This document shows, piece by piece, positions 5,531 to 56,450 of a stretch of DNA of 64,000 bases (positions within the stretch are counted from its first letter, which is position 1; each line of letters starts with the position of its first letter). The stretch lies in assembly GCA_033819885.1 (NCBI GenBank), contig JAQYUZ010000005.1, positions 186,001 to 250,000 on the forward strand, in the 5' to 3' direction. Origin of the DNA: Microbotryomycetes sp. JL201 (taxonomy: Eukaryota > Basidiomycota > Microbotryomycetes). Under the pieces are notes generated by a model, which saw only the letters and a list, made by a program, of their open reading frames with translations, had not been told where the DNA came from and did not search any database. A program made the translations under genes and the position numbers.

Positions 5531-5698
5531 ACTTTTTTCAGTAGTGAACAACGTTGTCATTTTGCAATTAGGGGAAAATGATCTTTCTCGGCTCAGTCGC
5601 GCACGAAGCTGGGTACCGTCGCACACAGCACTGATAGTTGTAGTACAACACAACGTGAACGACATGGTATGCAAAAAAAGCAAGGATACAAAGAGACT

Positions 5699-52029: not shown

Positions 52030-53546
52030 ATGCAAAAGCGATCAATGCGACGACTGGTGGTTTTGGCTGATGGGACATGGGAGGTGAGATGCAACAGGCA
52101 AATATCGTCACGTGCAAAATCTGACCTCGGCACACGCAGGACGCCGACTTTCAATCGAATCCAGACTTGCTGACCAATGTTGGACGGCTAGCACGCGCAA
52201 TACACACTACAGACACAAGATCTGGTCAACCGGTCCCTCAAATCATTCGTTACGCGGAAGGTTTGGGAACCGGATCGACGGCTTTAGTTGGAGCTTACCA
52301 AGGCGCGAGAGGCATCGGATTGTTGGCCAAAACAAGACACCTTTACGACTGGCTGTGCCTCAACTACGAAAAAGATGCAGAAATCACACTCGTTGGTTTC
52401 TCGAGAGGCGCATATTGCGTCAGGCTGCTCGCGAGCCTGATTGGCCAAATCGGACTGCTGATGCCGAGCAAGATGCATTTGTTCCCTGAAATATTTGACG
52501 CGCTATGTGCCAAGTGGGAGCTCGAAGAGTCAGAAGAGCGTCTGAGGCTTCTGCTTGAAGCGAACGAAGAGGACAGGCTTGCGCAACTGCGACAGTGTCC
52601 AAATGGCTTCCTCATCAAAGCGTTGCTCGTGTTCGACACCGTGAGCTTCATGGTCGAAAACAGCAACACGAGCTTACTCCTTCATCCAGGTACCTGTTTC
52701 GCCCTACAACGAACGAAGCGGTCTCTCTTCAGGCGACGCGCCAATTCTTTGGAACGCTTTCGGCATGCAAGCAGATAGGCTCGAGCCCCATATCGAAACG
52801 GCCTTGCAAGCTCTGGCGATCAACGAGTCCAGACCGGCGTACAAACCCTTGCTGTTTCAAGTCGATCCCCGCAATCCCAAACAAGGGCAGACCTTGCTGC
52901 AGACTTGGTTCGTAGGAGCCCACACTGATATCGGTGGAGGTTACCAGGACCATGATCTCGCCGACATTTCTCTCATCTGGTCGGTCGAGCGCCTAATGCG
53001 ATTCGCCGGCCTTTCTTTCGATCTCGACTACCTCGATGAGATTACAAGCCATCCCACGAGCATGTGGGGTCAGATGCAGCCACATAAGTGAGTAGTGATA
53101 CCCTTACATGATGAATGCTTTATTCTTGCCAGTTGCGGAGTGTACACGTGTTGACTTTCGAGGGCAGGGGAGTTTCTTGGGCCATTGCACCACAGCTGCG
53201 GATGTTTCCTGGTCGACATAATCCCGCGACGAACGAGCGCTTCCATGCCAGTGTGTTGCGCCAGTGTCCTGCTCATCTGCCTACACACATTCTGCCGTTT
53301 CTGACACGGCAGAGCTTGTTCGAAGAGCTCGGACCTCTTGAGCGACAATTGCAGCAACGTCACGACAAGGCCGTTAAGCGATTACCAACCTCAATCGCGC
53401 CGAGATTGAAACCGTCTGCTGTACCGACTGCTCTACAACCAAAGCAACGCACGCAGAGATTAAGTCGGCTTCGTGTCTTCATTGACCATGAGAAGCAAAA
53501 GCTGGAAGGAGCAGGCAACGCGAATAGCCAGGCCGCCGCCAGGTGA
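52030..53546 (+). CDS. DUF2235 alpha/beta-hydrolase-like protein
   Basis: Putative serine hydrolase of the DUF2235 family, common in fungi and related in fold to bacterial Tle1 phospholipases. Start 52030; MQKRSMRRLVVLADGTWE carries the opening D-G-T-W motif. Next come QSNPDLLTNVGRLARAIHTT, IIRYAEGLGTGSTALVGAYQ, the nucleophile elbow EITLVGFSRGAYCVRLLASL (G-F-S-R-G), LIKALLVFDTV, then in later exons LEPHIETALQALAINESRPA and LLQTWFVGAHTDIGGGYQDH, with the catalytic Asp and a His. The C-terminus includes FPGRHNPATNERFHASVLRQ and ends QAAAR at 53546. No signal peptide, so probably intracellular. Substrate unknown. Lies head-to-head with CASP (238 bp). About 440 residues. Confidence 0.88.
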
Positions 53547-53614: not shown

Positions 53615-53624
53615 GAGGACGGGG
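53615..53624. repeat. Left target-site duplication, GAGGACGGGG
   Basis: GAGGACGGGG immediately precedes the left terminal repeat and is repeated exactly at 55099-55108 after the right one. A 10-bp duplication fits Mutator-like insertion (9-11 bp). Confidence 0.72.
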
Positions 53625-53629
53625 GTGGG

Positions 53630-53924
53630 CGGGTTTTTCTGTGCGTGCCAACACCTTGATGCTATAGGCTTTGTCCACTGATAATTTTGCACCAAACTTC
53701 AGCAGCATGTTTTTCACATGTACAGAAGTCATTCTTGCAACTTTGGCGAGATACATGCCATGTCATCGCCTGGAATCACGTGCGGAAGAATTCTGTGCGT
53801 CTGTCAGTGCCTCTTTCTCGCATCTGCGCTTTGCTCTGCGTGTCTGCAGCAAAATCTGCGTTCTGCATTCTCTGCGTTCCCTGCGCTCTCTGTGCGCAAT
53901 CTCTGCAGAGCAAACGCACAGGCC
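53630..53924 (+). repeat. Left terminal inverted repeat
   Basis: Begins CGGGTTTTTCTGTGCGTGCC and matches the reverse complement of 54800-55094 for about 295 bp. Open frames inside are artefacts of the repeated TCTGCG units. Confidence 0.88.
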
Positions 53925-54175
53925 TCTGCAAGATCTGCGCACTGTACGCTCTCTGCGCGCTCGCTGCAGGATAAACGCACAGACCCCGCACAACCGCACA
54001 GGCTCCGCACAGCACACGCACTAAACGCAGTGAACGCGCACTTTTTGTGCACATTCTGCACAGCCACTGCACCGACGTCTGTACTATGATTGCACGTCTG
54101 ACATGATGCGCATACACAACTGCATACATGTCGAAGCAGTACAAATGCAGCTCGACCATTTCAAACTCAAGTAAA

Positions 54176-54629
54176 TCAAGATGCGATGATCTCTACTGAA
54201 TCGTCATACAGCTCCGTCCATAGTGCGTCGCCGTCCAAGAGGAAGACGCCCTGGGTTTGACGATAGCATTGATCGCAAACCTGGAACGGTCCTGCAACCG
54301 TTTGCAATCCATCGGTCATTCCTTGGTCTGTCGGGAGAGGCACTGCCGGATTGCACTTCTTGTGGAAGACTTCCGTGCGTAACACACAAATGGACCCAGC
54401 AGCATTCTTCCGATTACCTGGGACTGGTTGCTTACAGCGACCGCAAGGTGCCTGTGGAACAGCCACAGTAGGAGTATTCGTCGTACAGGCTCACGGAACC
54501 AAGACCGAAGTGTACCTTGTGGTGGTTCCTGAGCTTGAGATCAGGATTTAGTACGGTGCTGAGCAAGGTCGTGCCCTCCATAAGCTGTGGATTGATGAAG
54601 GTCGAACATGAGTTCGCGGAGTTTGCCAC
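54176..54629 (-). CDS. Small Cys-rich (LIM-like) protein inside the element, uncharacterised
   Basis: The main exon (54466-54176) encodes PQAPCGRCKQPVPGNRK, then TEVFHKKCNPAVPLP and FQVCDQCYRQTQGVFLLDGD, ending VEIIAS. The C-x2-C, H-x2-C and C-x2-C spacing is LIM-like, about one zinc site and a half. Upstream on the same strand, 54629-54440 has NPQLMEGTTLLSTVLNPDLK and HFGLGSVSLYDEYSYCGCS, which may be an earlier exon, spliced just before APCGRC at a CCACAG acceptor. It lies wholly between the terminal repeats, so it is cargo of the mobile element or a captured host gene. No transposase motif. Expression and start are unknown. Confidence 0.5.
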
Positions 54630-54799
54630 TGTGAGCTCTCACGTACTTGGCATGCGGTCACAGGGTCATGAAGCTTCGCGATCGACCAGGTGGACCCAAA
54701 ATCTTGGAGGAGGTCGTTTCACGGCAGGCCCCAAAGCCCTGAGTATGGAATCTGCGCGTTCTTAGCTCGTTCCCTGCGTTTGGTTCGCAGGCCCTGCGG

Positions 54800-55094
54800 G
54801 GCCTCTGCGTTTGCTCTGCAGAGATCGCGCACAGAGAGCGCAGGGAACGCAGAGAATGCAGAACGGAGATTTTGCTGCAGGTACGCAGAGCAAAGCGCAG
54901 ATGCGAGAAAGACGCACTGACAGACGCACAAAATTCTTCCGCAAGTGATTCCAGGCGATGACATGGCATGTATCTCGCCAAAGTTGCAAGAATGACTTCT
55001 GTACATGTGAAAGACATGCCGCTGAAGTTTGGTGCAAGATCATCAGTGGACAAAGCCTACAGCATCAAGGTGTCGGCACGCACAGAAAAACCCG
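54800..55094 (-). repeat. Right terminal inverted repeat
   Basis: Reverse complement partner of 53630-53924. Differences are scattered single-base changes, most of them transitions; no insertions or deletions seen by eye. Confidence 0.88.
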
Positions 55095-55098
55095 CTCC

Positions 55099-55108
55099 GA
55101 GGACGGGG
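55099..55108. repeat. Right target-site duplication, GAGGACGGGG
   Basis: Exact copy of 53615-53624. Its last bases touch the outer edge of the left arm of the neighbouring near-palindrome. Confidence 0.72.
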
Positions 55109-55727
55109 TCGCGTAGGATTGCAAAAAGACGAGAGACAGAATGGAGATGTGCGATCCAACTTAGTCAAACAATTTTCCAGATGAGTTTGGCGTGATCATT
55201 CCGGCATATGTTGTCCACTGTGTCCGTATGGACCCGCAGTATCGCGCACTTGTAAAGACGAATCTTCATAAAGACGTCGACAAGAATGATGATTTACGGT
55301 AGGGTTTCGGCGTTTCAGGCAGCGGCGAGGCGTCGCGGAGCGACCGCGATTACGCGCGGGCATACATCTTCTTCTTCTGGGTCGCATCACGGATCGCCGG
55401 CTAACGCCAGGAGCTCACACCGACCAAGTCCGCTTCGACCGGCACATCAGAGTTTCGTACCATTCAGGGTTTTCCTCATGACTTCACCTAGTCCCTTTTT
55501 CAATTTTGAAGTGCTGACGGGACACGGCCACCCCGGGCCCGTCATCATATCGAGGCTACACGAAATACGGGCCAGCGAGTCCACGCAAGATACACTGATT
55601 TTGCGAACAACAGCAGCCGTAGAACGGCGGTTCGAGGTCATCAATGTCGGAGCAGCTCTTGGCATTGACAGAGACCGTCCCGCGGTAATCCGATATCTCA
55701 TCGAGCAAATGATTAATCACAACAGGC
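55106..55727 (+). repeat. Left arm of a large diverged near-palindrome
   Basis: Starts GTCGCGTAGGATTGC and runs to CACAACAGGC. The reverse complement of 55794-56450 matches along its length, strongest over 55299-55727 (roughly 75-80% by eye), weaker with indels over 55160-55298. The conserved protein-level frame QNGDVRSNLVK appears in both arms, as does VLTGHGHPGPVIISRL versus ADGTRPPVPVTISRL. Confidence 0.75.
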
Positions 55728-55825
55728 TCTCGGACTATGCTGTAGTAAGGTCTCTTCCAAGCGAAGCGCCAAGATTCTACGCACATTCAAAAAGGCCTGT
55801 TGTGATTGACCACATGCTCGATTAG
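55478..55825 (+). pseudogene. Left copy of an inverted gene pair, unknown family
   Basis: Open frame MTSPSPFFNFEVLTGHGHPG, PVIISRLHEIRASESTQDTL, ILRTTAAVERRFEVINVGAA, YLIEQMINHNRLSDYAVV, ending IDHMLD. The inverted partner encodes a clearly related stretch, showing this was once a coding sequence. Upstream related sequence lacks one continuous frame, so the full gene is broken or strongly rearranged; a short expressed protein is still possible. No recognised domain. Confidence 0.4.
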
Positions 55826-55981
55826 ATAAAGAGGTCCGGCGAGGCGATACCTGTCGACAGCTTCTCCGACATTGATGCACTCGAACTGCCGTTCTACGGC
55901 TGCCGTTGGTCGCAAAAACAGTGCGTCTGGCGTGAGCTGGCTGGCACGTAGTTCGCGTAGCCTAGATATGGTGACGGGCAC
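55787..55981 (-). pseudogene. Right copy of the inverted gene pair
   Basis: Minus-strand frame MPVTISRLRELRASQLTPDA, LFLRPTAAVERQFECINVGE, LYLIEHVVNHNRPF. It parallels the left copy residue by residue (ISRL-E-RAS, TAAVER-FE-INVG, YLIE--NHNR) and stops where the arms end. Further upstream on this strand MFKAASGRRSATANVRRAYY then FSFWIASQIADKRQELTLN probably belongs to the same ancestral protein. Confidence 0.4.
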
Positions 55982-56450
55982 AGGTGGCCGTGTCCCGTCA
56001 GCACCTGAAAGCTGAAAAAGGGATTTTAGGTGAGAATACGAGTAAACCTAAATGGGGGGAAACTCTGGTGTGCGGGCCGAAGCGGACTTGTTCAATGTGA
56101 GCTCCTGTCGTTTGTCGGCGATCTGTGATGCGATCCAGAAGGAGAAATAGTAAGCGCGCCGCACATTTGCGGTCGCGCTTCGACGCCCCGAGGCTGCCTT
56201 GAACATCGAAATCCTACCGCACATTTTCCTCCCAACGTGTTTCCGGGGATTCGTGTTACGTATCTGAGCGCCACTTTGAAGCTGTTTCTACAGGCGTGGA
56301 GGTCCCCACGCAGTGGGTCAAGATCGACAATTAAATCGTACCCCATTAGCTGGAGTGATTTCGCCAAACTACTCTAGGACATGGCTTGACTAAGTTGGAC
56401 CGCACATCTCCATTCTGTCTGTTTATGTGGTGCAATTCTACGCGACTCAG
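55794..56450 (-). repeat. Right arm of the near-palindrome
   Basis: Reverse complement of the left arm, separated from it by only 66 bp (55728-55793). The outer end near 56450 is the CGCGTAGAATTGC equivalent of the left CGCGTAGGATTGC. Confidence 0.75.

What the first reader, a model, noticed from the sequence alone, without database searches (positions are those of the whole stretch)
53615..55108. A 1.47-kb Mutator-like element with about 295-bp inverted ends, exact 10-bp target duplication and a cargo gene
Seen: GAGGACGGGG on both sides of a unit whose ends are inverted copies with about 14 differences in 295 bp, and no transposase. Known: MULEs have long terminal inverted repeats, 9-11-bp duplications and often carry captured genes. 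Inference: this is a non-autonomous MULE in a fungus, recent enough to keep an exact duplication. The dense CTCTGCG-type repeats inside the arms may be transposase-binding sites.
Basis: partly seen in the sequence, partly recalled or inferred. Interest (0 to 1): 0.72.

Follow-up and report, generated by a model that had tools for sequence, protein, structure and literature searches.

The report
Low-copy long-armed DNA transposon, transposase-less
This is a small jumping-gene relic with long mirror-image ends and a duplicated landing site, one of three copies found in a small eukaryotic (probably fungal) genome; no mover enzyme was found for it, and it is ordinary apart from a small zinc-finger-like reading frame inside it.

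Summary
A 1,473-bp unit (53626-55098) has ~296-bp inverted arms, 95% complementary, inside an exact GAGGACGGGG duplication. It is mobile: the same 17.15-Mb genome holds a second complete copy (94.3% identical) and a half copy cut off at an LTR-like end. (1) No MULE partner was found: PF10551, PF00872 and PF03108 gave 0 matches, and no longer copy appeared. The second complete copy has no target duplication, so the 10-bp duplication rests on one insertion; the Mutator-like assignment is by structure only. (2) The exact duplication does not show recency: with all arm divergence placed after insertion it would survive with probability 0.59. The cargo is a 104-codon frame open in both complete copies. 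The second copy's frame resembles C1/FYVE/PHD zinc fingers (C1_1 E=1.7e-5, just under cut-off); the window copy has Arg at one candidate ligand. No parent gene was found, so capture is unproven. New detail: arms are more alike within an element than between elements (2000 of 2000 bootstraps), implying arm homogenisation. Verdict: probable non-autonomous MULE/Foldback-type element, a new member of a known kind.

The parts
53615..53624 (.). left copy of the 10-bp target-site duplication GAGGACGGGG (a further G at 53625 cannot be assigned)
   Evidence: 2 of 200,000 random placements match
53626..55098 (.). element, 1,473 bp; second complete copy C19:31909-33379 (1,471 bp), half copy at C28 ending at 5646
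53626..53924 (+). left terminal inverted repeat, starts TGGGCGGGTTTTTCTGTGCGTGCC
54800..55098 (-). right terminal inverted repeat; outermost bases differ: GGAGCGGGTTTTTCTGTGCGTGCC read inwards
53800..54060 (+). inner arm and adjoining interior dense in TCTGCG-type motifs, partly 9-bp and 11-bp degenerate tandem units
   Evidence: 9 motifs against at most 3 in 387 windows
54740..54960 (-). the same motif-rich stretch on the right side
   Evidence: 10 motifs against at most 3 in 387 windows
54176..54490 (-). 104-codon frame (stop to stop, first ATG only at codon 58), zinc-finger-like; C1_1 E=0.015 here and 1.7e-5 in the C19 copy
   Evidence: selection signal weak
54516..54581 (-). possible first exon (22 codons from ATG), hypothetical
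   Evidence: read by hand from the sequence printed; no transcript evidence
54452..54515 (-). possible 64-nt intron GT...CACAG joining in frame to the zinc-finger frame; GC donor and a 1-bp deletion in the C19 copy
   Evidence: read by hand
55099..55108 (.). right copy of the target-site duplication GAGGACGGGG

Best explanation
A non-autonomous cut-and-paste DNA transposon of Mutator/Foldback type. Shown: ~300-bp terminal inverted repeats, a 10-bp duplication at this insertion, other copies in unrelated flanks of the same genome, no transposase found inside. Inferred: a DDE transposase supplied in trans bound the arms (perhaps the dense TCTGCG-type motifs of their inner halves), cut out the element and joined it to a 10-bp staggered cut here, about 70 bp downstream of the last frame of what is probably a phospholipase-like gene. 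The family is small (two complete copies and one half copy found) and its helper was not found in this assembly, so it is probably inactive. The arms of each copy became alike after the copies separated, most simply by gene conversion between the arms or by repair copying. The small zinc-finger-like frame is a passenger: a captured gene piece or a remnant of the helper's coding region.
For: Arms and duplication. Second complete copy at C19, 94.3% identical over 1,474 aligned bases, in flanks that do not resemble those of the other copies. Half copy at C28 that stops at an LTR-like end TGTGACA, with copia reverse-transcriptase sequence (PF07727) on the same contig at C28:16-420. The terminal 23 bases with up to 3 mismatches match 4 ends at these three places and nothing else, against 0 for the control pattern (the scan missed the C19 left end, so it can miss diverged ends). 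Published ranges: MULE duplications 8-11 bp and TIRs commonly hundreds of bp (PMC6446971, passages); Tm1 Mutator/Foldback elements have composite TIRs on average 93.15% identical and 8-10-bp duplications in 45 of 53 complete elements (PMC3169594, passages). Arm homogenisation: four-point sums 18 within element against 33 and 33, within-element grouping in 2000 of 2000 bootstraps; a FastTree on the same columns agrees for the C19 pair (support 0.910) and separates C45 from the rest (0.906).
Against: No MULE transposase domain found in the genome (PF10551, PF00872, PF03108: 0 matches each; PF20700 uninformative). The C19 copy has no target duplication: no shared stretch of 6-11 bp with at most one mismatch within 30 bp of the two ends, where the same scan recovers the window duplication. 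So the 10-bp duplication rests on one insertion. The outermost bases of the two ends differ (TGGGCGGG against GGAGCGGG).
Confidence: 0.68

Rival explanations
1. A transposable element of another superfamily, for example mobilised by a KDZ (Kyakuja-Dileera-Zisupton) transposase, with the 10-bp duplication being unusual for it.
For: PF18758 (KDZ) is the only one of the five DNA-transposase-related families I tried that matches this genome: one locus with a stop inside at C15:153079-153744, E=3.7e-12 (the others).
Against: The KDZ locus (18.5 kb read) carries no copy of the arms: best matches to the element have E 0.22 or worse. One of these, E=1.6, aligns the terminal 29 bp at 79% inside the KDZ region; I take it as chance. 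KDZ duplications are about 8 bp (recalled, from no call).
Confidence: 0.12
2. A Foldback-type or inverted-duplication product (rearrangement or hairpin-mediated duplication) rather than a transposed element.
For: Long arms with internal repeats; the C19 copy lacks a duplication; in the window the right flank starts with another, older inverted repeat.
Against: Same ends at three loci with unrelated flanks and an exact flush 10-bp duplication are what transposition gives and what rearrangement does not.
Confidence: 0.07
3. The internal frame is not a passenger but an accessory protein needed by the element, in the manner of a second ORF of autonomous MULEs.
For: Open at the same length in both complete copies; 9 synonymous and 9 nonsynonymous differences, pS 0.12 and pN 0.038, Fisher P about 0.018; zinc-finger resemblance in the C19 copy.
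Against: 3.7% of the 2,322 windows of 312 bp of the element, any frame, give as low a ratio, and stop-free windows in another frame go lower (0.25 against 0.31); a longest frame of at least 104 codons occurs in 69% of 1,000 randomised interiors. The window copy has Arg where the C19 copy has the fourth candidate zinc ligand. The frame has no early ATG without a hypothetical intron.
Confidence: 0.1

Closest known systems
Non-autonomous Mutator-like elements (MULEs), including Pack-MULE type
   Same: TIRs of hundreds of bp, 10-bp duplication within the 8-11-bp range, no transposase found, non-transposase frame inside (ranges from PMC6446971 passages; that table also lists MULEs in Basidiomycota)
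   Different: no MULE transposase found in the genome; only three copies found; parent of the internal frame not found
Tm1 Mutator/Foldback family of root-knot nematodes
   Same: composite TIRs with internal short repeats, asymmetric outermost motifs at the two ends, arms about 93-95% alike, 8-10-bp duplications, and a relative lacking a duplication (Cg-1) (PMC3169594 passages)
   Different: no sequence comparison was made; internal repeats here are degenerate 9-11-bp units, not 13-15-bp tandem arrays; no transposase-bearing member found here
Rehavkus
   Same: long TIRs (26-400 bp), 9-bp duplications, minisatellite near the 3' TIR, PHD finger in the transposase protein (PMC6446971 passages); the frame here is PHD/FYVE/C1-like
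   Different: described from arthropods and annelids; no DDE domain found here; PHD similarity of the frame is weak (E=0.024)
Fungal MULEs such as VdMULE1-3 of Verticillium
   Same: TIR DNA elements of the same proposed superfamily in fungi
   Different: VdMULE1-3 TIRs are 73-86 bp and the elements carry a MULE (PF10551) transposase (PMC3441728 passages)

Membership tests
Mutator-like elements (MULE) | terminal inverted repeats, often hundreds of bp | tested here: met
   296 nt, 95% complementary; 293 nt, 98% in the C19 copy
Mutator-like elements (MULE) | 8-11-bp target-site duplication at insertions | tested here: inconclusive
   exact 10 bp at the window copy; none at the C19 copy; the C28 copy has lost one end
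Mutator-like elements (MULE) | MULE transposase (PF10551/PF00872) in the element or in a longer relative that shares its ends | tested here: inconclusive
   0 matches in the genome for PF10551, PF00872, PF03108; RVT_2 as positive control gave 7 matches. Not finding a helper in one assembly does not exclude a lost or diverged one
Mutator-like elements (MULE) | dispersed copies in the genome | tested here: met
   three places
Pack-MULE (captured host gene) | internal sequence matches a parental host gene | tested here: not met
   in this genome the interior DNA and the 104-aa frame match only the element's own copies
KDZ transposons | KDZ transposase locus that shares the element's ends | tested here: not met
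   the one KDZ locus found shares no arm
Rehavkus | DDE transposase with PHD finger between long TIRs, 9-bp duplication | tested here: not met
   no transposase found inside; 10-bp duplication; PHD similarity only E=0.024

The most novel reading that the evidence does not exclude
A small long-TIR family whose arms are repeatedly homogenised within each copy and which carries its own cross-brace zinc-finger protein (C4HC3 spacing in the C19 copy) as a transposition factor, moved by a transposase outside the known MULE domain families, since no MULE domain was found in the genome.
Probability: 0.07. Interest if true: 0.55.

Novelty: new member of a known kind. Interest (0 to 1): 0.28.

Why it matters
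It confirms that a structure read by eye in one window is a dispersed mobile element, and corrects two inferences often made from such structures: an exact duplication does not date an insertion as recent, and an internal frame is not a captured gene until a parent is found. The arm homogenisation within each copy is a usable small case of how long inverted repeats stay alike. If the zinc-finger frame is a conserved element protein, it would point to the missing helper family.

Tried and rejected
Recent insertion on the strength of the exact duplication: rejected as an argument. Coding selection on the internal frame: nominal P about 0.018, but 3.7% of all windows of the element reach the same ratio, another stop-free frame goes lower, and a frame this long is expected; kept only as weak support. 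Captured host gene: no parent by DNA or protein up to E=10. KDZ helper: no shared arm, and no similarity of the internal frame to the KDZ region better than E=1.7. PDB sequence search with the C19 frame: three hits of E 0.3 or worse, no help. Viral contigs: 43 pattern matches, none confirmed. Naming the organism from assembly size in papers: 0 papers. Paper searches for Mutator-like or Pack-MULE elements in basidiomycetes, smuts and fungi (listings read, of which three papers were opened by passages) showed me no description of this family, which says little, since no library of fungal repeats was on hand. A search on arm homogenisation in foldback elements was read as a listing only. An early tree over all 326 alignment columns paired the two left arms of C45 and C19; restricted to the arm columns 10-300 the pairing is within C19, with C45 apart, so the early result came from columns beyond the arms or at their tips. 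In one search a C19 self-alignment runs 21-22 bases past both ends of the copy; looked at alone the flanks share 18 bases at 78%, E=0.64, which I take as chance. The sequence model R1 built was not used for any result.

Full report
What is there. The window holds a unit of 1,473 bp (53626-55098) whose ends are inverted copies: arms 53629-53924 and 54800-55095, 296 nt, 95% complementary, 875 nt apart. GAGGACGGGG stands at 53615-53624 and 55099-55108, with one extra G at 53625 on the left. Of 200,000 random placements of a unit of this size in the window, 2 had identical 10-bp flush flanks. The outermost bases differ between the ends (TGGGCGGG left, GGAGCGGG right, read inwards).

Copies. The window lies in a genome of 17,152,241 bases in 92 contigs. 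A search with the whole unit found three places: the window (C45), C19:31908-33379 (94.3% over 1,474 aligned bases in the pairwise comparison) and C28:5175-5643 (89%), with the arms also matching each other. A search with the C28 arm at E up to 10 found the same five arms and no more. The terminal 23 bases with up to 3 mismatches matched 4 ends at these three places, with 0 for the reversed control; the C19 left end was missed, so diverged ends can escape this scan. The tool warns that counts of repeats are lower bounds. The C28 copy keeps only the right part; its homology stops at a TGTGACA end that looks like the 3' end of an LTR, and copia-type reverse transcriptase (PF07727) lies on the same contig at 16-420. 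The C19 copy is complete (1,471 bp) but its flanks...ATTGAAGCCC and GTTTTTCAAACG..., show no duplication: no 6-11-bp stretch with at most one mismatch is shared within 30 bp of the ends, while the same scan recovers the window's duplication. Flanks of the three copies do not resemble each other at E 1e-3.

Helper. No match in the genome for PF10551, PF00872 or PF03108. PF20700 gave none either, but also none in any control, so that search says nothing. The control genomes named in these answers (7 names of the 14) are prokaryotes, so they are poor controls for a eukaryotic MULE; PF03108 rang in 2 of them, below cut-off. RVT_2 (PF07727) as a positive control in this genome gave 7 matches. A KDZ transposase gene with a stop inside lies at C15:153079-153744. 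I read 18.5 kb around it: no copy of the arms (best E 0.22; one 29-bp match of the element's terminus at E 1.6, taken as chance) and no similarity to the internal frame better than E 1.7. So the superfamily is inferred from TIR length and duplication length alone.

The internal frame. On the minus strand 54176-54490 is open for 104 codons and is open at the same length in the C19 copy, 91% identical. Differences: 9 synonymous, 9 nonsynonymous, pS 0.12, pN 0.038, Fisher P about 0.018. Controls weaken this: 3.7% of 2,322 windows of 312 bp, either strand, have as low a ratio; among 77 windows free of stops in both copies, some in another frame go lower (0.25 against 0.31); and 69% of 1,000 randomised interiors (first-order Markov) have a frame of at least 104 codons. 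Better evidence for coding is the C19 protein's similarity to zinc fingers: C1_1 E=1.7e-5 (25.0 bits, cut-off 26.5), FYVE E=0.0046, PHD E=0.024, all below their cut-offs. Read from the alignment, its ligand pattern is C-x2-C-x15-C-x2-C-x4-H-x2-C-x25-C-x2-C, which fits the PHD type as I recall it. The window copy has Arg in place of the fourth Cys and falls to C1_1 E=0.015. The first ATG in the frame is at codon 58. Reading by hand, an upstream exon of 22 codons (54581-54516) could join in frame through a 64-nt GT...AG intron (54515-54452); in C19 the donor reads GC and a 1-bp deletion falls in the proposed intron. This is a hypothesis. No parent gene was found in this genome by DNA or by protein at E up to 10, so 'captured' is unproven; loss of the parent, capture elsewhere, or descent from a helper's coding region are all open.

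Motifs. TCTGCG, TCTGTGCG and CCTGCG together occur 9 times in 53800-54060 and 10 times in 54740-54960, both strands counted, against at most 3 in each of 387 same-size windows from the first 53 kb. Some form degenerate 9-bp and 11-bp tandem units. They lie in the inner half of the arms, and the outer 174 bp of the left arm has 2. Exact CTCTGCG occurs 29 times in the whole window against 16.2 expected, 6 of them in the element. Whether a transposase binds these motifs was not testable.

Arms within and between copies. Differences over the first 300 alignment columns: C45 left/right 16, C19 left/right 9, between C45 and C19 arms 17-22, to C28 23-27. If arms had evolved apart since the family arose, left arms would group with left arms. 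Instead the four-point sums over columns 10-300 are 18 (within element), 33 (left-left and right-right) and 33 (crossed), and within-element grouping was best in 2,000 of 2,000 bootstraps. In those columns 7 sites pair the two arms of one element (4 where the C45 arms differ from C19 and C28, 3 where the C19 arms differ from C45 and C28) and none pairs left with left and right with right. The two sites that do keep left and right apart (pattern ababa) drop out when the first nine columns are left out, so they lie at the very tips. Even there C28's right end has the left-type tip TGGG. Arms were thus homogenised within elements after the copies separated; gene conversion or repair copying are the usual causes (inference).

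Age. Arms of the window copy differ at 16 of 300 columns. Even if all of that arose after insertion, 20 duplication bases would stay unchanged with probability 0.59. The exact duplication therefore does not show a recent insertion.

Surroundings. Upstream, the frame 52645-53091 matches PF09994 (T6SS Tle1-like phospholipase catalytic domain; E=2.3e-18); a following frame ends at 53546 and may be its last exon (inference; no Pfam match), which would put the insertion about 70 bp past the stop. Downstream, exactly at 55109, an older inverted repeat begins. The organism was not identified; a MetRS-like frame closest to a cytoplasmic enzyme, an oxysterol-binding-protein frame, copia retrotransposons and a 17-Mb genome make a fungus likely but not proved.

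Verdict. A non-autonomous long-TIR DNA transposon, most likely of Mutator/Foldback type, in a very small and probably inactive family.

Noticed in passing
window 55109-56446: An old inverted repeat of about 1.3 kb (71% identity over 684 aligned columns; the two arms hold frames that look alike by eye, without a Pfam match) starts exactly at the base after the right target duplication. A part-copy on C3:28416-28565 starts at nearly the same point (3 bases earlier), so the transposon sits precisely at the edge of another repeat family; why is unexplained.
   Followed up: partly
L034/L035, contig C15 about 153079-153744: A KDZ-type transposase gene with a stop inside, in a genome where no MULE domain was found.
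   Followed up: partly
L010, contig C28 1-5230: Retrotransposon remains: copia reverse transcriptase with a stop at 16-420, repeats of 101 and 137 bp consistent with several LTR pieces, and an LTR-like end that truncates the C28 copy of the element.
   Followed up: partly
L009, contig C19, both sides of the second copy: A 203-column direct repeat (69% identity) flanks the C19 copy, 136 bp from one end and 308 bp from the other; it could relate to the missing target duplication there.
   Followed up: no
C45, C19 and C28 arm tips (window 53626-53634, 55090-55098): The outermost bases are of two types (TGGG and GGAG) and are the only arm sites that still tell left from right in C45 and C19, while the rest of the arms is homogenised; the C28 right end carries the left type.
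   Followed up: partly
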